From Terracoccus sp. 273MFTsu3.1 (GTDB taxonomy: Bacteria > Actinomycetota > Actinomycetes > Actinomycetales > Dermatophilaceae), in NCBI RefSeq assembly GCF_000383675.1, contig NZ_KB911829.1:1-64000 (forward strand): DNA of 64,000 nt, given 5' to 3'. Of this stretch, positions 1 to 9,239 are shown piece by piece (position 1 is the stretch's first letter; every line of letters begins with the position of its first letter). A program made the translations under genes and the position numbers. The notes beneath the pieces were generated by a model. The model worked only from the letters and a program-made list of their open reading frames with translations. It had not been told where the DNA came from and did not search any database.

Positions 1-200
1 AGATCCTGCAGTTCTGGATCGGCAACGAACTGCTCCGCACCGTGCGACGCGAGAGCACCGGATCCGTCCGCAACAAGCGACCCCTGGGAGGTGCCCTGAC
101 CAAGACCAGAGCAGAATGAACACCAACAACGAGTGTCAAGGATCAACCGACACACAACCGTCAACCATCAACCGAACCCGTACAGGGGCACCACACGTTT
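1..200 (+). mobile_element. Right end of an insertion sequence (partial, IS481-like?)
   Basis: This stretch holds the end of a transposase-like frame (stop at 117-119) and about 80 AT-richer bases after it. Those contain a 9-bp direct repeat, ATCAACCGA, at 142-150 and 167-175, plus related TCAACC/CAACCG copies. Repeated short motifs just past a transposase stop are what the terminal transposase-binding region of an IS481-type element looks like. The IS family is from memory. The other end lies outside the window. Confidence 0.45.
3..119 (+). CDS. Transposase/integrase C-terminal fragment (5' end off the window)
   Basis: The frame is open from the window edge and encodes 38 residues ending LTKTRAE. 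It includes the segment GNELLRTVRRESTGSVRNKR, a basic tail of the kind that follows the DDE core in IS481-type transposases. Only the tail is visible, so no catalytic residue can be checked. The direct repeats just downstream support an IS origin. It could also be the end of an unrelated DNA-binding protein. Confidence 0.45.
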   Translation: MLQFWIGNELLRTVRRESTGSVRNKRPLGGALTKTRAE

Positions 201-1804: not shown

Positions 1805-2248
1805 ATGGGCACACACGACGTCACCGAGACACCACGTCACTCGGTCAGCGTTGCCGCCGCGATCTTCGACGAGAGCGGCGAGAACGTCCTTCTCATCAAG
1901 CGACGCGACAACGGCCGCTGGGAACCCCCCGGCGGAGTCCTAGAACTGGACGAGACGATCGAGGACGGCCTCCGCCGGGAGGTCCGCGAGGAAACTGGAG
2001 CCGACGTTGAAATCGGCACCCTGTCTGGGGTGTACAAGAACATGCGACACGGAATCGTCGCACTTGTTTTCAGAGCGCGACTACTTTCTGAGCCGGAAGG
2101 CTCATCCGACGAGGCCATGGAAGTGGCTTGGATTCGGGTATCTGAAGTGCAGAACATCATGGTTCCGGCGTTCGGCGTCCGCATCACAGACGCCGCAGCT
2201 CGGGGTGCGTCGATTAGATCCCACGATGGCCAGACGGAAGTGAAGTGA
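1805..2248 (+). CDS. Nudix hydrolase (Pif-like)
   Basis: This 147-residue protein has a canonical Nudix box at residues 44-66: G44, E50, then R58-E59-V60-R61-E62-E63-T64-G65, matching GX5EX7REUXEEXGU exactly. Such enzymes hydrolyse nucleoside diphosphates linked to another group; the substrate cannot be told from sequence. In pSAM2 a Nudix protein, Pif, blocks redundant conjugal transfer between cells carrying the same element, and its pairing with a GntR repressor is typical of these elements. ATG 1805 starts right at the beginning of the domain; the frame stays open upstream, but that part overlaps the GntR gene and shows no protein-like character. The next gene begins 8 bases after the stop, so the SLATT gene may be co-transcribed from this promoter. 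Confidence 0.85.
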   Translation: MGTHDVTETPRHSVSVAAAIFDESGENVLLIKRRDNGRWEPPGGVLELDETIEDGLRREVREETGADVEIGTLSGVYKNMRHGIVALVFRARLLSEPEGSSDEAMEVAWIRVSEVQNIMVPAFGVRITDAAARGASIRSHDGQTEVK

Positions 2249-2256
2249 AATAGCCG

Positions 2257-3177
2257 ATGTCCCACCATCCTGGCTCAGCCAGCGAGCCCAACGCCGGACA
2301 GCATCTCCAACTCCTGGACGGAGACCTGCCAGACCTCCACGACGGTGCCGATCGGGCCTCAACTGATGGACAGAACCAGTTCATCGGTACAACACGCGCC
2401 AAGTTGACCGCGGCGATCCTCGCGGCGGCGCTATCCGCGGCCATCAGGCCAGGTCCTCTCGAGAAAACTCTTGCGTTCGCGGTGGGCATCGCGTTTCTCA
2501 TAGTGTTCGTACTTGAAGCTTGGATCTGGGCCACCAATCCGGTCAGGGCATGGTACGACGGCCGCGCGTTGGCCGAATCGGCAAAAACCATGGCTTGGCG
2601 ATACGCGGTGGGCGCCGAGCCCTACCCAATTCAAGACGAGACATCGACCACAAGATTGGTCACTGACTTAGGCGCCCTTTTATCGGACGCACCGGAGACA
2701 GAACTTCATCCGTCTTCGAAGGATCCAATTTCAGACGGCATGCGTGCAGTTCGCGCGTCTCCCCTGGACCAACGTCGGACAATCTTCCTGCGCGACCGCA
2801 TCAATCAACAACGATCTTGGTACTCAAACAAAGCATCCATTAGTCGCTCGCGAGCGAGACAATGGCGCTTCGGCCTCCTCGTCACTGAAGCCATCGGGAT
2901 AGCTATCGCCTTCGCACGTGCCTTTGGTGCGACAGACATCGACCTTGCCGGGATCGCGGCGGCCCTTGTAGGCGCCGGCGCGGCGTGGCTGGGCATTCGC
3001 CAGCACGAAACCGTTAGCAGAGCCTACGCATTCGCAAGCCACGAGCTCGCAATCGCCGGGGAGCGCCTTAAGGCCATTGACGAGGAAGAAACATGGGCAA
3101 AGGCGGTGGCAGACGCCGAGGAGGCGATCAGCCGAGAACACACCATGTGGCGCGCCTCGAGGTCGTCAACGGCCTGA
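2257..3177 (+). CDS. Tandem SLATT/DUF4231-type membrane effector candidate
   Basis: The protein has 306 residues. After a polar 40-residue N-terminus come two hydrophobic helices (about 48-62 and 70-91), then WYDGRALAESAKTMAWRYAVG (100-119), a diagnostic block of DUF4231/SLATT proteins. A second module starts near 185 (RSWYSNKASISRSRARQW) with two more helices (about 205-250). SLATT domains are two-helix membrane proteins found with SMODS nucleotidyltransferases, SLOG proteins, TIRs and other nucleotide-signal enzymes. They are proposed to form pores when a second messenger binds. The stop lies 3 bases from the convergent stop of a TIR-like gene, so they form a tail-to-tail pair. The two may act as signal maker and membrane effector; that is inference. 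DNA here is clearly less GC-rich than the host. No strong Shine-Dalgarno precedes ATG 2257, fitting coupling to the Nudix gene. Confidence 0.75.
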   Translation: MSHHPGSASEPNAGQHLQLLDGDLPDLHDGADRASTDGQNQFIGTTRAKLTAAILAAALSAAIRPGPLEKTLAFAVGIAFLIVFVLEAWIWATNPVRAWYDGRALAESAKTMAWRYAVGAEPYPIQDETSTTRLVTDLGALLSDAPETELHPSSKDPISDGMRAVRASPLDQRRTIFLRDRINQQRSWYSNKASISRSRARQWRFGLLVTEAIGIAIAFARAFGATDIDLAGIAAALVGAGAAWLGIRQHETVSRAYAFASHELAIAGERLKAIDEEETWAKAVADAEEAISREHTMWRASRSSTA

Positions 3178-3180
3178 GTC

Positions 3181-3642
3181 TCATCGCCGGCAGGTCGCGA
3201 TCGAGTTCGTAGGCATGTTGGCCCCGCGCGCCGTCCCTCGAATCGCTCGCTCAATCGCAGGCGCAAACTCTTGCACGTCACTGGGCTTGGCCCAATCCAA
3301 GATCTCTGCGCCGGACTCTGTCAGGCCCTCAGGCACGGCAGCACCATCTTCGATGCGAATTCCGACCAGCGCATTACCCTTTTCGCGGCTCCACTCAATC
3401 TCATTTGCTACCCAGTCACTCTTCGCCGTGTCCTTTCCGATAAGAATGATGGTGGCAGAGGTGCCCTTGAGTTGCTCCTTGATTTTCCGCGTAATGTACG
3501 CGGGATCGCTACTGTTCACAGGGTCCAAGAGATGGCGCATTGAGACATCGAGCTTGACATTCTTGTTATAGGTTGCGAGATTCAGACCTTTGGCCTTCAT
3601 CTGGTCACGATGCTGATAGCTAAGAAAAACTCGGCGCGCCAT
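3181..3642 (-). CDS. ThsB-like TIR domain protein (DUF1863/MTH538 type)
   Basis: The protein has 153 residues, essentially a single domain. The N-terminus RRVFLSYQHRDQ is the first TIR strand. ATIILIGKDTAKSDWVANEI (about 63-82) carries the conserved strand and the W-x3-EIEWS helix with E81/E83, the usual site of the catalytic glutamate. ALVGIRIEDG follows. This is the ThsB family: stand-alone TIRs that make cyclic-ADP-ribose-like messengers after phage sensing in Thoeris. No ThsA (SIR2-SLOG) gene is present; instead a SLATT membrane protein faces it. The start lies 6 bases after the stop of the zinc-ribbon gene upstream, so it belongs to the minus-strand operon. Role in immunity is inferred from family and context. 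Confidence 0.78.
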   Translation of the reverse strand: MARRVFLSYQHRDQMKAKGLNLATYNKNVKLDVSMRHLLDPVNSSDPAYITRKIKEQLKGTSATIILIGKDTAKSDWVANEIEWSREKGNALVGIRIEDGAAVPEGLTESGAEILDWAKPSDVQEFAPAIERAIRGTARGANMPTNSIATCRR

Positions 3643-3648
3643 TCCCGC

Positions 3649-4431
3649 TCACGCTCCTTCCGGCCGAAGGGTCGCGAGCTTCCCACACACAGGACACCGC
3701 TTAAGGAGAGCACGATTGCTAATGACGTGATCGCACTCGGAGCATCGCCATTCCCCCGTCGGGCTACTGTTCGGGGCATCCACCGGATCGCCTGGCTGTC
3801 TCAAGTAGTCACCAGCGTCGCTCCACGTAAACCCCTGCTCTCGCCCCCAAGACGGGTACGCATATCCCGACCGGCTCTTCGAGAACTGCTCGATGCGTTG
3901 CAGTTCAGCCAAGTAGTCGGACGTCCTATCGGGCACAGCGTCAAATGTGGCCATGATGCTATCAACAATGGCCGCTCCGATTGGCTTCTGAGTACGAAAC
4001 GGCACCTGCATTACCTCAGAAACGCCTTCAGCAAACTCTGACGGAGGAACCGGGTCGATGAACTTCAGGCGATCGGCTGCTAGAGCGAAATCCCCCTTCT
4101 CCTGACCGCGACTGCCTTCCGCAAACCAGCCGACGTGGTAATAGCCGGCCACCAGCCGGCCAGCACCAGGCCTACTTGTCATAAAGACAATGGTCGCAGC
4201 GCCCGTTGACACAATGATGCGCCGCATGCTGGGTTCGCACGTTGAGAAGAGCCCATACGTTCCGGTTTCGATGTTCGGATCACTCTTGTTGTCACTCGGC
4301 CTCGTAACTTCGCGAATCGGCCACCGTGCCAGGGGCTCATTAAGGTAAACTGAAAGATAGCCAGACCCATGGTCCTTCAGAGGTTGCCACGGAGCCCCCG
4401 GAGGGGCGCTGCTCGAAAGACTTGAACTCAT
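3649..4431 (-). CDS. Unknown protein with C-terminal zinc ribbon (operon member)
   Basis: I do not recognise the body of this 260-residue protein. Residues 30-130 look like a mixed alpha/beta domain (GTYGLFSTCEPSMRRIIVST, then RLVAGYYHVGWF). Its style recalls small PUA/EVE/Nmad-like folds that occur with nucleotide- or base-modification genes, but this is a weak impression. Near residues 228-249 two cysteine pairs, CSEC and CPVC, form a zinc ribbon. The ATG overlaps the stop of the MazG gene in a TAATG junction, so translation is coupled, and the TIR gene follows after 6 bases. Tight coupling to MazG and TIR suggests a shared function. A nucleic-acid- or nucleotide-binding sensor is the most reasonable guess. 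Confidence 0.6.
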   Translation of the reverse strand: MSSSLSSSAPPGAPWQPLKDHGSGYLSVYLNEPLARWPIREVTRPSDNKSDPNIETGTYGLFSTCEPSMRRIIVSTGAATIVFMTSRPGAGRLVAGYYHVGWFAEGSRGQEKGDFALAADRLKFIDPVPPSEFAEGVSEVMQVPFRTQKPIGAAIVDSIMATFDAVPDRTSDYLAELQRIEQFSKSRSGYAYPSWGREQGFTWSDAGDYLRQPGDPVDAPNSSPTGEWRCSECDHVISNRALLKRCPVCGKLATLRPEGA

Positions 4432-5768
4432 TACATCGCTCCTCTGATTTCAACGTCACCCAGGAACCGCGGCGGGACCTTCATATACACCAAGCTGCGT
4501 CGATCTAGGTCTGCCACCACGAAGCCACCCTTGCCTGCCTCCAGCTCACCCATGACACTGAATCCTTGGCTGATCGCTTCACGCCAGAGCCAAGGTGGCA
4601 TCTTGGATACTTCCAGATCCTCCAAAACGGTCGTCATGATCTCGACGAGGTCATCGGGAACAAGCCGCGGATTTGCAAAGCCCTGACTGTCTGGCGCGCG
4701 CTTTGCCAACAATGCCGAAAGGCCCTCTTCGGCGAAGACTGCGCGCGCACCGTCCTCATTTTCATCTACGAGCGGGTCGCTCTTGCGCTTCAAACCCAAC
4801 AGCTGCCTCAGATTTGGGGACCATCCCATCACCGCGACAAACCCAAGGTGAACCGCATCGTGGTACCGATAGGCATCGTTCGCAGACGAATTGTCCGTAA
4901 CCTTGTCACCCAACTGTGCCCGGACGGCAAAACCCTGAGACTTGCCACCGGAGCGCGGGATCGGCCCATCAGGAAACGCGTTTGGATCCGCGGCAATTAG
5001 GGTCAGGGTGACTTCTGGACGTCCTTCCCTCAAGCCCTCTTGGAAGCGCAAGAGCATTCTGCGAGGGAAACGCTCAGCACTAGGATAACCGGCATCCAGA
5101 ACTGGGAGGTCCGCCCGATCAACAGCTTGCCCCAACGCCTGGCGTGATCTCCGAGCACGCTCAAGGTCATCGGCTGCAATCTCAAGGAGATCAAGCGAAG
5201 CATGGGACGCACAGGCGGCCATGTACCACAGTAGGTCGCCTAGCTCAGTCTGGATGAAGCCTCCCCAGTTACCTCCGGGCTCGTCCCCGCGAAACCGCTT
5301 TTTCAGCGCGACCATCAGGCTTCCGGACTCACCGGCAAGACCCAGCATAGGAACGCTCAGTGCTAGCGGGTCGTAGCCATCGGCGGATTCTTGATCCGTG
5401 TGCCTCGCCAATGCCTGGTATCCGCCAATGTCAGCGCCCTCACTGGCGTCAAAAGTCGGCAGACCGGCAAAGCCTAACTGCACAGCCCGATGGTGAACCT
5501 TTTCTAAGTTCGCGAGGGCTATCGAACTGAGCGATAAAGTGTGATGTGACGCCAGCAGAGAAGCCCACCTCAGCAACTCGCCCAAGTGTCGGGCCACCAG
5601 CGTCCGGCTAGCGCCCGCGACCAGCGCGTCACGTAAGTACCTCTGTTGACTGCCTAGAAGGTCTCCGACATGGGCACCCACGCCGAGGAGCGGAATTAGT
5701 TCATGCGCATAGTCAGCGGGATCCGCCAGACCGCGCACTACAGCTTGGTATTCATCGAAGTTCAACAC
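4431..5768 (-). CDS. MazG-like nucleotide pyrophosphohydrolase with MazG_C domain
   Basis: The protein has 445 residues. The MazG-like four-helix region lies at about 135-205: GLAGESGS (E147), then ELGDLLWYM (E175, D178), the metal-binding ExxD helix. S150 stands where MazG proteins often have a second glutamate. Residues 60-96 (HLGELLRWASLL to NLEKVHHR) repeat the second half of this pattern without the acidic residues, so a degenerate first copy seems to precede the active one. Residues ~225-440 (RYHDAVHLGFVAVMGW, LKRKSDPL, DENEDGARA) match the MazG C-terminal partner domain. MazG enzymes hydrolyse NTPs or dNTPs to NMP and PPi. This longer type is known near base-modification genes and in phage-defence settings. 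It sits between a hypermodification-family gene (47 bases upstream) and a translationally coupled zinc-ribbon gene. Substrate unknown. Confidence 0.75.
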   Translation of the reverse strand: MLNFDEYQAVVRGLADPADYAHELIPLLGVGAHVGDLLGSQQRYLRDALVAGASRTLVARHLGELLRWASLLASHHTLSLSSIALANLEKVHHRAVQLGFAGLPTFDASEGADIGGYQALARHTDQESADGYDPLALSVPMLGLAGESGSLMVALKKRFRGDEPGGNWGGFIQTELGDLLWYMAACASHASLDLLEIAADDLERARRSRQALGQAVDRADLPVLDAGYPSAERFPRRMLLRFQEGLREGRPEVTLTLIAADPNAFPDGPIPRSGGKSQGFAVRAQLGDKVTDNSSANDAYRYHDAVHLGFVAVMGWSPNLRQLLGLKRKSDPLVDENEDGARAVFAEEGLSALLAKRAPDSQGFANPRLVPDDLVEIMTTVLEDLEVSKMPPWLWREAISQGFSVMGELEAGKGGFVVADLDRRSLVYMKVPPRFLGDVEIRGAM

Positions 5769-5815
5769 TCACCCCTGTGATTCCCCTAGGTTCACGATGT
5801 TAAAGCTCAGACCGA

Positions 5816-6877
5816 CTATCTCGGATTGATCCCCCACTTCGGGGGAAACCAAGGCGTCTCTAGCGCGCCCTTGGGGCGGAAGACTTGCTTAATTCTCTTA
5901 CGTCGCGTGAGCCCTAAGATCTCTGGATGCGCAACGCGCGCATACTTGTCGGTTTCACAGAACAAGTTTTGGCAATCAATGAGAGTCAACTTCCGCTTCC
6001 CCATTAGCCCACCAAACTGCAAGCCGAGTCGCTCAAAGTGCTCATCCTGCGAGTCCGCCATGTATCGGATTATCGATGCCTCACGTCCTGCGGACGCCGC
6101 CCCGAAACACTTGCGGATTCCATCTCGCGCCCCGGGGCCAGGAACGACGAACTCCATCTCGTCGAAGTTGAGCGCGTTCGAATAGTTGATGTCGATAACG
6201 AATTGATAGGCTAAGAAGTCGCCAATGCCAGGATAGGCGCGTATTGCAAGGAAGGCTTCCTCCATAGAACCGCTGGAGTGGATGCGCTCCGGGAGGCCCT
6301 CTTCCAACATCTTCCTTAATAGGAGAAGATGGTTCGTCGCCTTTCGCGGTGCCCCCATCCCTGGCTGGGGGATCACATATGCTGCGGAGTAAATCGGGCC
6401 AGAACGCGAGAGCGCGAGGAGGAAATCCGACATTTCGTCAACATCAAAACGCGAGATCTGTAGCGGCCCAAACTCTTTCGACAAGGCTAGCCATGTTTCT
6501 ATTTTGTTAAAGAACTTGAACAACAACGTGCGAAAGATGACTTCTTCAGGTTTCTGCGATCCCTCATAAGCGACGTTCTTTATCACAAACTGGCTCACGC
6601 GGTCAGAGGCCCTGTAGCAGTTGGTGAAACGGTGTCGAGCAAGAATCGGATCAGTGCTCCATGGCCCCACCGCACCCCTTGTACGCGCCTCGTACAGCGC
6701 TTGCCGTCGGGCTGCAAACCTCCAGTACGTGTCGAAAACTTCTGTCGTTTGCAACGATCGCTGGCCGACTTTGATCTGCCGTGAGCGCCACCTCAACTCA
6801 TTTGGGGGGCGATGGACCTGCCAGAGGACTTCCTGCTCATACGCATAGCTGGCATCCTCAGCGTGAACGACCCTCAT
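5816..6877 (-). CDS. DNA base-hypermodification family protein (hmdU kinase helical / AGPT type)
   Basis: The protein has 353 residues and is helical throughout. Conserved blocks are DTYWRFAARRQALYEAR (49-65), PWSTDPILARHRFTNCYRAS (72-91), FKFFNKIETW (120-129), a helix-hairpin-helix-like AYPGIGDFLAYQF (214-226), NYSNALNF then EMEFVVPGPGARDG (231-253), and LIDCQNLFCETDKYARVAHP (299-318). This pattern is the family labelled 5-hmdU DNA kinase helical domain or alpha-glutamyl/putrescinyl-thymine pyrophosphorylase, described from phages that hypermodify thymine and also found in bacterial islands. It is related in fold to HhH DNA glycosylases. In a bacterium without an obvious thymine-hydroxylating partner it may instead recognise or cut modified bases. 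It is 76 bases downstream of the deoxyribosyltransferase-like gene and 47 upstream of MazG, same strand. Family call fairly sure; activity unknown. Confidence 0.7.
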   Translation of the reverse strand: MRVVHAEDASYAYEQEVLWQVHRPPNELRWRSRQIKVGQRSLQTTEVFDTYWRFAARRQALYEARTRGAVGPWSTDPILARHRFTNCYRASDRVSQFVIKNVAYEGSQKPEEVIFRTLLFKFFNKIETWLALSKEFGPLQISRFDVDEMSDFLLALSRSGPIYSAAYVIPQPGMGAPRKATNHLLLLRKMLEEGLPERIHSSGSMEEAFLAIRAYPGIGDFLAYQFVIDINYSNALNFDEMEFVVPGPGARDGIRKCFGAASAGREASIIRYMADSQDEHFERLGLQFGGLMGKRKLTLIDCQNLFCETDKYARVAHPEILGLTRRKRIKQVFRPKGALETPWFPPKWGINPR

Positions 6878-6953
6878 GAGATTCGGCTTAGACGCGAGCC
6901 GAGGTTAGCCACGAAGGTTGGGCAGGCTGGCAACGGTCCGCTTGTGCTGCGAC

Positions 6954-7343
6954 TCATACTGCTCCCCCCTCACGGCCTGCAACGATAGACAGCATCAGGT
7001 GCGCATAGTCGTCTAGATCCACATAAAATTGAGTTTGACTTCGGCCAAAGACCTGATGCAATGCCGTACCCCGTTTGGCGACGAGCACACATGGCTTCTC
7101 GAGCGCTTGGGCTAGCCCTAATTCGAAATAGCAACTTGGGCGTTCAAGCGAAAGGTCAGCGACAACCAACTCAGCCCGTTTAAGGTCGCCCAGGACATCG
7201 GAAGGCTGTATCGCATGCAGGTCTGTTCTCTCAAAGGGAAGGTGCAACTGCACGCGATTCGTACTCTCCAGGCTCTGCAAAACTTCACGTTTCGCAGCAT
7301 ATTCCGGATCGGACCCTACAGGCATAATCATGTAGATATACAT
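6954..7343 (-). CDS. Nucleoside 2-deoxyribosyltransferase-fold protein
   Basis: I start the 129-residue protein at ATG 7343 (MYIYMIMPVGSD). The frame continues upstream, but that part overlaps the preceding gene and looks like noise. The opening strand MIMPVG, then ELVVADLSLERPSCYFELGL (58-77, with D63 and E74) and KPCVLVAKRG, is the classic deoxyribosyltransferase/TIR-like Rossmann pattern, where the YFELG glutamate is usually catalytic. Families with this fold cleave nucleosides or make and sense nucleotide signals, and occur as small proteins in anti-phage islands. The start lies 4 bases after the stop of the RipA-like membrane gene, so the two are almost certainly co-expressed. The pair mirrors the TIR/SLATT pair at the other end of the cluster: a nucleotide enzyme next to a membrane protein. 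Confidence 0.68.
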   Translation of the reverse strand: MYIYMIMPVGSDPEYAAKREVLQSLESTNRVQLHLPFERTDLHAIQPSDVLGDLKRAELVVADLSLERPSCYFELGLAQALEKPCVLVAKRGTALHQVFGRSQTQFYVDLDDYAHLMLSIVAGREGGAV

Positions 7344-7347
7344 AGAT

Positions 7348-8127
7348 CTAACTCGTCGGCTTCGCTGAAGTGCGGAGAGACTCGTCGCCGCTGGGCGGGG
7401 GCAGCGACCGCCCGTTGGTCTGCGAGACGACGGAGGTCGGTCTTGTGGAAGGCACACCCGACGAACTCGCCCCCGAGGTCGGCGTAGCCGAGGGCACCTT
7501 CGAGAACGGCGAGGGATACTTGGTCACTTCCCCGAAGTTCGCCAGTGTTACGAAGATAGTGCCAATCAAGAAGCACGCGAACAGCACACGAAAACTCTTG
7601 GGAACGAAGTACTCTGCGGTTCCACCCTTCAGGACAAGAAGCCGCTTACCGGCACCGCTGGAAACTTTGACGAGCGCCTGCCCTTCGAGGAGTACCTGCC
7701 ACTCCCGATCAAACGGAGAAAAAGACTTCGCCAACGAGGCCCCTCCCGACGATTCAAAGATGACTAGTGGTGCCATCTCGTTCAGCACTTTGAACTTAGC
7801 ATTGTTCAATTGCTTCGCATCATCGATCTGCGCGACCCAGTAAAAGCAGAAAACGATACCTAGCAAGCATAGCGCGATGATCAGGAGAACGGTTGAGAGC
7901 CGCAACGTCTCTCTTTCGACCGACAGATTCGCGAGAACCGCGATCGCCAGCACGATAGCGGCGCAGACAGAGTAGTTGAAGCGGTTCATCGCAACGCGAC
8001 GCTCGGTTACTCGCTCCGAAGACTCGAATAGGAGCTTGTACTCCTCGAAAGACACGTGTGCGGGCGCCGGCGGTACGGTTGCCGGCGCGCTCGGGTCCGC
8101 CGCTGACGACAGCCCGCTCTTTGCCAT
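7348..8127 (-). CDS. RipA-like / SLATT-like membrane protein
   Basis: The protein has 259 residues counted from MAKSGLSS at 8127; a longer frame to 8172 exists but adds nothing recognisable. Residues ~26-47 (VSFEEYKLLFESSERVTERR) form an amphipathic helix, followed by two membrane helices (about 48-70 and 76-97), a cytoplasmic or beta-rich middle, a third hydrophobic stretch (FRVLFACFLIGTIFVTLANF), and a Ser/Thr/Pro-rich tail. The F-x-x-YK-x5-E-x5-RR then membrane-helix pattern resembles RipA-family octameric membrane proteins and, more loosely, SLATT effectors. Its tight linkage to the deoxyribosyltransferase-fold gene suggests a sensor-effector pair. Function is inferred, not known. Confidence 0.55.
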   Translation of the reverse strand: MAKSGLSSAADPSAPATVPPAPAHVSFEEYKLLFESSERVTERRVAMNRFNYSVCAAIVLAIAVLANLSVERETLRLSTVLLIIALCLLGIVFCFYWVAQIDDAKQLNNAKFKVLNEMAPLVIFESSGGASLAKSFSPFDREWQVLLEGQALVKVSSGAGKRLLVLKGGTAEYFVPKSFRVLFACFLIGTIFVTLANFGEVTKYPSPFSKVPSATPTSGASSSGVPSTRPTSVVSQTNGRSLPPPSGDESLRTSAKPTS

Positions 8128-9195: not shown

Positions 9196-9237
9196 CTCCT
9201 AAAGCGGGTGTCGCAGGTTCGAATCCTGCCGGGGGCA
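9196..9237 (+). mobile_element. Attachment site: 3' half of tRNA-Arg(CCT)
   Basis: From the anticodon loop CTCCTAA (9196-9202) through the T-arm GCAGGTTCGAATCCTGC to the acceptor strand CGGGGGC and discriminator A (9237) this is the 3' half of a tRNA-Arg with anticodon CCT. The 5' half is missing: the five bases before the loop do not pair with AGCGG, and no GCCCCCG acceptor start lies upstream. Similarity beginning at the anticodon loop is the signature of tyrosine-integrase insertion. I take this as the right junction of the island; the intact tRNA should be at the other end, outside the window. Confidence 0.8.
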
Positions 9238-9239
9238 CG

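What the first reader, a model, noticed from the sequence alone, without database searches (positions are those of the whole stretch)
2257..8127. Candidate composite defence system: two nucleotide-enzyme/membrane-protein pairs around a base-hypermodification and MazG core
The sequence shows six tightly spaced minus-strand genes (RipA-like membrane protein, deoxyribosyltransferase fold, hmdU-kinase/AGPT family, MazG plus MazG_C, zinc-ribbon unknown, ThsB-like TIR) and a convergent SLATT protein 3 bases from the TIR stop. Known: ThsB TIRs make NAD-derived messengers; SLATT proteins are proposed messenger-gated pores; MazG hydrolyses (d)NTPs; the AGPT/hmdU family handles modified thymine. Inference: a locus that senses altered nucleotides or phage modified bases and triggers membrane damage, with the central enzymes making or removing the trigger. 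I know of no described system with this gene set.
Basis: partly seen in the sequence, partly recalled or inferred. Interest (0 to 1): 0.87.

Follow-up and report, generated by a model that had tools for sequence, protein, structure and literature searches.

The report
TIR–SLATT gene unit with base-modification enzymes
Five of the seven genes form a recurring unit, found in several actinobacteria and one haloarchaeon, that pairs enzymes of the phage DNA-base-modification type with a predicted signal maker and a predicted membrane pore, and so looks like an undescribed variant of an emerging class of virus-defence systems.

Summary
The gene list is confirmed: a low-GC island (57.8% against 72.3%) carries 8xMP, a nucleoside-deoxyribosyltransferase-like gene (NDT), HMUDK_hel, MazG+MazG_C, a zinc-ribbon protein (ZnR) and a ThsB-type TIR, plus a convergent SLATT gene. 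It is two things. (1) HMUDK–MazG_C–ZnR–TIR–SLATT is a conserved unit: all 8 ZnR loci found (7 actinobacterial, 1 on a haloarchaeal plasmid) carry HMUDK and the TIR, 6 of 8 SLATT/DUF4231; L107 has the same five genes, collinear. In five relatives thymidylate synthase + kinase stands in for MazG_C. (2) NDT–8xMP is probably a separate pair: no NDT and no independently found 8xMP in 88 other HMUDK loci. The wider class is in print as predicted and partly validated defence (DefensePredictor 2026); I found no description of this variant. Marker: all 26 TIRs adjacent to ZnR or Nmad2 have a cysteine in their last six residues, against 4 of 17 other TIRs in the same loci and 1 of 16 other ThsB-family ORFs. 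Likely mechanism: HMUDK/MazG handle a modified pyrimidine, ZnR gates the TIR, an ADP-ribose-type signal opens SLATT. The chemistry is inferred; nothing was assayed. The island lies in a decayed integrative element at tRNA-Arg.

The parts
2257..3177 (+). SLATT protein, 306 aa, two SLATT domains (SLATT_3 + SLATT_1): predicted nucleotide-signal-gated membrane effector; convergent here, co-directional downstream of the TIR in L085, L094, L106 and L107
3181..3642 (-). ThsB-type TIR, 153 aa, with the glutamate at the usual TIR catalytic position (E81; position recalled, conservation) and a C-terminal cysteine tail (ATCRR)
   Evidence: best solved relatives 8fz9 (TIR, 7e-12), 9b7d and 6lhy (ThsB/DUF1863, 6e-7)
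3649..4431 (-). ZnR: 260-aa protein with an unnamed N-terminal domain (invariant DNKSDPN, YGL.STC) and a C-terminal Cys4 zinc ribbon; partner of the TIR, in the place that Nmad2 takes in sister systems
4431..5768 (-). MazG + MazG_C nucleotide enzyme, 445 aa; HDxxH and DxxED of MazG_C, invariant in 8 aligned proteins, are intact; an extra degenerate MazG-like repeat at the N terminus
5816..6877 (-). HMUDK_hel / AGPT-pyrophosphorylase-family protein, 353 aa, without a P-loop kinase partner in the island
6954..7343 (-). Nucleoside-deoxyribosyltransferase-like enzyme, 129 aa: first half of a probably separate two-gene module
   Evidence: no match in 88 HMUDK loci
7348..8127 (-). 8xMP (octameric membrane protein family): second half of that module
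9196..9238 (+). attR: 43-bp exact copy of the 3' end of tRNA-Arg(CCT) at G000:C6
231..902 (-). Tyrosine-integrase C-terminal remnant fused to an unrelated N-terminal reading frame (decayed integrative element)

Best explanation
The island holds a five-gene abortive-infection-type defence unit, HMUDK–MazG/MazG_C–ZnR–TIR–SLATT, with an independent NDT–8xMP pair beside it. Proposed working: the HMUDK-family protein and MazG/MazG_C act on a modified pyrimidine (5-hydroxymethyl-type deoxyuridine in phage DNA, or its nucleotide) and so make, or normally keep low, a trigger; ZnR, which takes the place of the Nmad2 protein of sister systems, senses that state and gates the TIR; the TIR turns NAD+ into an ADP-ribose-type signal; SLATT binds it and breaks the membrane. 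Shown here: gene content, its recurrence, the fixed TIR partner, conserved active-site positions. Inferred: substrate, trigger, messenger, the gating role of ZnR, and the pore.
For: ZnR was sought independently of HMUDK position (though with a model made from HMUDK-linked ZnR proteins): it is in 4 of 394 class genomes and 1 of 72,556 plasmid records. The 3 genomes other than the window's all hold HMUDK within about 3 kb (chance about 2e-6), and the plasmid (Natronomonas, an archaeon) carries HMUDK, ZnR, a 191-aa HMUDK-associated protein, DUF4231/SLATT and ThsB_TIR. L107 carries the same five genes collinearly with 4-base overlaps at MazG/ZnR and ZnR/TIR. Of 27 loci with a TIR within 7 kb of HMUDK, 18 carry Nmad2, 8 ZnR, 1 (L067, cut by a contig end) neither, none both. 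MazG_C or a thymidylate kinase is present in 80 of 89 loci. Every TIR adjacent to ZnR or Nmad2 (26 of 26) has Cys in its last six residues, against 1 of 16 other ThsB-family ORFs. TIR–SLATT pairing and SLATT as an ADPr-regulated membrane effector are published predictions (PMC9503650, passages; PMC7159879, passages).
Against: No activity, phage phenotype or metabolite was tested. The ZnR N-terminal domain matches no family, its model is mediocre (pLDDT 62, pTM 0.64) with no structural match at E<=0.001, and profile comparison with Nmad2 is not significant, so 'ZnR takes the place of Nmad2' is positional only. The window lacks the kinase and thymidylate synthase of sister loci, so HMUDK may lack its usual substrate route. 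The MazG motif departs from the canonical form as I recall it (GESGS). SLATT is inverted here, so it is not in the TIR transcript. 2 of 8 ZnR loci (L087, L089) lack SLATT. The cysteine tail is not exclusive: 4 of the 17 other TIRs in the same loci also have it (L087, L089, L107 second TIRs, and L099, whose TIR is two genes from ZnR).
Confidence: 0.5

Rival explanations
1. A plain TIR–SLATT (Thoeris-like) module, with HMUDK, MazG and ZnR a neighbouring, functionally unrelated nucleotide operon in the same defence island.
For: TIR–SLATT pairs occur in phages with other partners (PMC9503650, passages), and SLATT is on the opposite strand here, outside the HMUDK operon.
Against: ZnR and TIR are adjacent in 7 of 8 ZnR loci, overlapping by 4 bases in L107; all ZnR loci found carry HMUDK, including an archaeal plasmid; Nmad2–TIR recurs beside HMUDK in the same way (a set chosen by HMUDK).
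Confidence: 0.2
2. A self-marking system: HMUDK-family enzymes put a rare modified base into host DNA and the TIR–SLATT arm punishes unmarked or wrongly marked invading DNA, like a lethal restriction-modification system.
For: An HMUDK relative sits in what looks like a phage base-modification cluster (Brevibacterium phage LuckyBarnes: thymidylate synthase and two glycosyltransferases beside it); sister loci carry thymidylate synthase and kinase genes.
Against: No thymidylate synthase or kinase was found within 7 kb of the window's HMUDK, so no route to make the base is visible in the island.
Confidence: 0.15
3. One seven-gene system: NDT–8xMP is a second output of the same operon.
For: Same strand, gaps of 4 and 76 bases, same low-GC island; in one other genome (G182) an 8xMP gene lies on the HMUDK contig, about 18 kb away; L025 has an 8xMP-like protein next to HMUDK–MazG (recognised by eye).
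Against: NDT has no match in 88 other HMUDK loci, and the only 8xMP match there (L025) had been put into the model; 8xMP lies beside a TIR in 3 of 7 other loci looked at.
Confidence: 0.12
4. Chance collection of genes in a mobile element.
For: The island sits in a decayed tRNA-Arg integrative element, and ZnR is missing from the other 185 of 186 family genomes searched, including the 8 of the same genus.
Against: The five genes recur with conserved partners, in L107 collinearly.
Confidence: 0.03

Closest known systems
DefensePredictor (PMC13092281; I saw the abstract, sections 5, 7 and 8, the figure legends and passages; not the figures or supplements): validated E. coli systems with 5-hmdU kinase and thymidylate synthase domains, and predicted aGPT-Pplase, MazG, MazG-C and NMAD systems
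   Same: Same nucleotide-enzyme domains; the wider class found here (HMUDK with MazG_C, TS, TMK, Nmad2) overlaps it. The legend of Fig. 3C also names dNMP kinase and NMAD.
   Different: Whether these domains share one system there could not be seen. The words SLATT, 8xMP and zinc ribbon do not occur in the main text; MazG and MazG-C had not been validated there.
Thoeris (types I, II, IV)
   Same: ThsB-type TIR paired with a second gene that would respond to an ADP-ribose signal; PADLOC calls the TIR ThsB.
   Different: No ThsA (SIR2-SLOG, TM-macro or caspase-like); SLATT instead, plus HMUDK, MazG and ZnR. Types as described in PMC12847820 (passages).
TIR–SLATT neighbourhoods of firmicute phages (PMC9503650, passages)
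   Same: TIR next to a 2TM SLATT effector.
   Different: Those sometimes come with an HTH or a metallopeptidase; no HMUDK or MazG with them in the passages read.
HMUDK–Nmad2–TIR–(TIR-SLOG)–MazG_C loci of other bacteria (sister systems found here)
   Same: HMUDK core, MazG_C or TS+TMK, C-terminal-cysteine TIR.
   Different: Nmad2 in place of ZnR; TIR–SLOG or TM18 proteins in place of SLATT. Probably within the network of Burroughs et al. 2015 (recalled; not held).
Phage 5-hmdU kinase / AGPT-PPlase base-hypermodification clusters
   Same: HMUDK_hel-family protein (38% identity in Brevibacterium phage LuckyBarnes).
   Different: No thymidylate synthase, kinase or glycosyltransferase beside HMUDK in the window; TIR and SLATT instead.

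Membership tests
Thoeris | ThsB TIR-domain protein | tested here: met
   PADLOC ThsB 3.8e-19; PF08937 3.9e-19; E81 invariant in 11 aligned TIRs
Thoeris | ThsA effector (SIR2-SLOG, TM-macro or caspase-like) in the operon | tested here: not met
   No ThsA-type match among the seven island proteins in Pfam, PADLOC or NCBIfam; SLATT instead
TIR–SLATT conflict module | TIR gene adjacent to a SLATT gene | tested here: met
   Adjacent in the window, 3 bases between stop codons, and in L085, L094, L106, L107 and (as DUF4231) L099
HMUDK / 5-hmdU DNA kinase | HMUDK_hel domain | tested here: met
   PF18723 3.8e-106, residues 45-320
HMUDK / 5-hmdU DNA kinase | P-loop kinase domain, fused or as a separate TMK-like gene (the rule is recalled; fused forms appear in L092 and L095) | tested here: not met
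   The window HMUDK matches only PF18723; no TMK gene within 7 kb of it
HMUDK / 5-hmdU DNA kinase | Kinase activity on 5-hmdU in DNA | not testable with these tools
   Needs an assay
MazG NTP pyrophosphatase | Canonical metal motif EExxE...ExxD (recalled) | tested here: inconclusive
   ELGD kept, first half reads GESGS; PF03819 0.013; aligned family matches solved MazG-type/DCTPP1 chains at about 1e-5 to 5e-4
Nmad2 | ZnR homologous to Nmad2 | tested here: not met
   hhalign probability 0.3% and 1.1%; no Pfam hit; shared position next to the TIR and a shared TC.P..R string only
Anti-phage defence system | Protection against phage | not testable with these tools
   Needs plaque assays

The most novel reading that the evidence does not exclude
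A previously undescribed immune type, spread over two domains of life, in which enzymes of the thymine-hypermodification family couple a modified-pyrimidine trigger to a TIR that carries an obligatory C-terminal cysteine. That tail would be a working part (for example the acceptor or release switch for an ADP-ribose-type product, or the contact to ZnR/Nmad2), and the signal would open a SLATT pore.
Probability: 0.25. Interest if true: 0.88.

Novelty: new variant of a known kind. Interest (0 to 1): 0.64.

Why it matters
It ties base-hypermodification enzymes, best known from phages, to TIR–pore immunity in one conserved unit, and suggests that bacteria and archaea may read or make modified pyrimidines as an infection signal. 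It gives concrete, testable parts: ZnR as a TIR partner, interchangeable MazG_C and TS+TMK arms, and a C-terminal cysteine that marks the TIR class.

Tried and rejected
Seven-gene single system: rejected as the main reading, since NDT has no match and 8xMP no independent match in 88 other HMUDK loci. One 8xMP-like protein (L025) was seen, but I had put it into that model because it resembled L130, so it does not count as found; the Pfam 8xMP profile itself was not run on those 88 loci.

ZnR as a divergent Nmad2: attractive by eye (TC.P..R motif, similar place), but hhalign, Pfam and Foldseek gave no support. A model of Nmad2 for comparison was queued and had not finished.

Module swapping between HMUDK lineages: the free tree needs 4 changes for ZnR, though its well-supported branches force only 1; on a 43-row tree that left out L087 and L099 one ZnR clade is not rejected (AU p 0.70). 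Swapping is unproven.

Cysteine tail as a private mark of ZnR/Nmad2-adjacent TIRs: not private. Of 43 TIR reading frames, 26 are adjacent (26 with Cys in the last six) and 17 are not (4 with it: second TIRs of L087, L089, L107, and L099).

Finding the validated E. coli system by DNA: no match with a Pseudomonas HMUDK gene. ZnR in viral contigs: 29 pattern matches, none a relative.

Literature: ten searches. 'SLATT + MazG + AGPT' gave 0 papers and 'HMUDK_hel' 0. In the listings shown (only 20 of 60 papers and 20 of 128) PMC13092281 was the only one that bore on this core. Burroughs et al. 2015 is not held, so its figures may already show part of the sister systems.

Gene calling was my own simple script; counts use a 7-kb reach and E 1e-4. 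Of the 16 control TIR ORFs, L137, L142 and L144 may not be the right reading frame (without them 1 of 13), and some are long multi-domain proteins in which the TIR is not at the C-terminal end.
Full report
Observation. The membrane protein at 7348-8127 belongs to the 8xMP family (PF24838, 4.6e-21). The minus-strand genes are packed with gaps of 4, 76, 47, -1 and 6 bases; SLATT is convergent, three bases from the TIR stop codon.

The mobile element. A 43-bp exact copy of the 3' end of tRNA-Arg(CCT) lies at 9196-9238; the intact tRNA is near the end of contig C6. C6 ends in an IS481-like reading frame (identified by eye), and a 16-bp string that spans the 3' end of the intact tRNA recurs at window 185-200. 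The island thus looks like the cargo of a small integrative element whose left end was split by an insertion sequence and whose integrase is a remnant (231-902). ZnR is found in 1 of 186 genomes of the own family, the window's, and in none of the 8 others of the genus among them, which fits recent acquisition.

Co-occurrence. HMUDK_hel is found in 6 of 396 phylum genomes and MazG_C in 5 of 396, all among those 6 and on the same contig within about 6 kb (p about 5e-9). With five loci, three further ZnR loci and the window I classified 89 loci. MazG_C is present in 68, thymidylate kinase in 20, either in 80, both in 8; TS-like proteins of either kind in 70. Output genes fall into classes: an Xre–M78–TS-like cassette (M78 in 60 loci); TIR with Nmad2 (18); TIR with ZnR (8). 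No locus has both Nmad2 and ZnR; one TIR locus (L067, cut by a contig end) has neither.

The window's class. ZnR was then sought without reference to HMUDK position (with a model made from HMUDK-linked ZnR proteins): 4 of 394 class genomes and 1 plasmid record of 72,556; no viral contig. The three genomes other than the window's all hold HMUDK within about 3 kb. Together with the HMUDK scan there are 8 distinct ZnR loci: the window, L085 Micropruina, L087 (= G886), L089 Agromyces, L094 Kocuria, L106, L107, and L099, a plasmid of the haloarchaeon Natronomonas gomsonensis. All 8 have HMUDK and a ThsB-type TIR; SLATT is found in five by my model and DUF4231/SLATT in L099 by Pfam, so 6 of 8. L087 has a TPR-S protein (Pfam) and a second TIR instead, L089 likewise (TPR-S by eye), and L107 has SLATT and these two. 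The nucleotide arm is MazG_C in the window and L107, thymidylate synthase + thymidylate kinase in L085, L087, L089, L094 and L106 (Pfam on L085), and in L099 a 191-aa protein whose relatives lie next to HMUDK on a Haloarcula plasmid and one gene from it on a Rhizobium plasmid; it resembles a nucleotide pyrophosphohydrolase only weakly (E 0.86). Identities to L107: HMUDK 56%, MazG 38%, ZnR 52%, TIR 59%, SLATT 42%; to L099: HMUDK 31%, ZnR 36%, TIR 50%, SLATT 24% over 75 columns. These are distant relatives, not copies.

Residues. The TIR glutamate position (E81, SDWVxxEIEW) is invariant in 11 aligned TIRs. MazG_C keeps HDxxH and DxxED in all 8 aligned. ZnR keeps its four ribbon cysteines and DNKSDPN in all 8. 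The C-terminal cysteine of the TIR was not expected: 26 of 26 TIRs adjacent to ZnR (7) or Nmad2 (19, one of them beyond the 7-kb reach) have Cys in their last six residues. Of the 17 other TIRs in these loci 4 have it: L099, whose TIR is two genes from ZnR, and the second TIRs of L087, L089 and L107; the second TIRs next to HMUDK in the Nmad2 loci end in WTD or similar and lack it. Among 16 other ThsB-family ORFs of the phylum only L134 has it. The tail was noticed in the data before it was counted, so the p value (2e-10) is only a guide, and related rows count more than once.

Trees. On an 89-row HMUDK tree the ZnR label needs four changes, its well-supported branches forcing one; one ZnR clade is not rejected (p 0.70, 6 ZnR rows). 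Whether the effector half jumped between HMUDK cores is open.

NDT–8xMP. NDT has no match in 88 other HMUDK loci. 8xMP is found in 8 of 246 phylum genomes, 6 over the cut-off; one of them (G182) has it on its HMUDK contig, about 18 kb away. Of seven 8xMP loci looked at (L126-L130, L148, L149), three have a TIR gene directly beside it (L127, L128, L149). The pair is best read as its own enzyme + membrane module.

Mechanism. What is shown is architecture. The chemistry is inferred from families: an HMUDK relative lies in what looks like a phage base-modification cluster; MazG-type enzymes hydrolyse (d)NTPs (general knowledge), and the nearest solved structures include dCTP pyrophosphatase 1; TIRs make ADP-ribose signals that open effectors, including membrane ones in type II Thoeris (PMC12847820, passages); SLATT is predicted to be a nucleotide- or ADPr-gated membrane effector (PMC9503650; PMC7159879). 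I give the full chain 0.5, and the weaker claim that the five genes are one functional unit about 0.85.

Prior work. DefensePredictor (PMC13092281) reports E. coli systems with 5-hmdU kinase and thymidylate synthase domains that protect against phage, and names aGPT-Pplase, MazG and MazG-C as predicted but unvalidated. The class is therefore known; the ZnR–TIR–SLATT variant, its presence in an archaeon and the cysteine tail I did not find in print (long listings seen in part), with the caveat that Burroughs et al. 2015 could not be read.

Noticed in passing
L018-L097: Most HMUDK loci (M78 in 60 of 89) carry an Xre regulator, an ImmA-like protease and a thymidylate-synthase-like protein, usually without a TIR and often with a small acyl-carrier-like protein; an L096 neighbour matches phosphopantetheinyl transferase (PF01648, 2.1e-11), and Haloarcula (L151) and Rhizobium (L152) loci add a PPTase/acpS and a C1 peptidase.
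   Followed up: partly
window 5439-5768 (N terminus of the MazG protein): Residues 1-110 look like a second, degenerate MazG repeat that is absent from L107 and the other 6 aligned relatives.
   Followed up: partly
window 1805-2248: A NUDIX hydrolase gene ends 8 bases before SLATT on the same strand; no NUDIX relative in 85 HMUDK loci. It may belong to the element's backbone or to an ADP-ribose control.
   Followed up: partly
window 1-200 and L125 7099-7487: An IS481-like element appears to split the left attachment site and to cause the contig break; a 16-bp string is present on both sides.
   Followed up: partly
L087 14023-15966, L089 13998-15941, L107 5371-7320: The TPR-S proteins that replace or join SLATT carry an NDT-like stretch by eye (L087: FIVMPYG...ALVDLTTTNFNVAYELG); Pfam sees TPR-S and a weaker TPR-type match in L087 and L107 (L089 not scanned).
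   Followed up: no
L127, L128, L149: 8xMP membrane genes directly beside TIR genes: a likely separate two-gene module; PADLOC 2023 gave no match for the 8xMP half of L127.
   Followed up: partly
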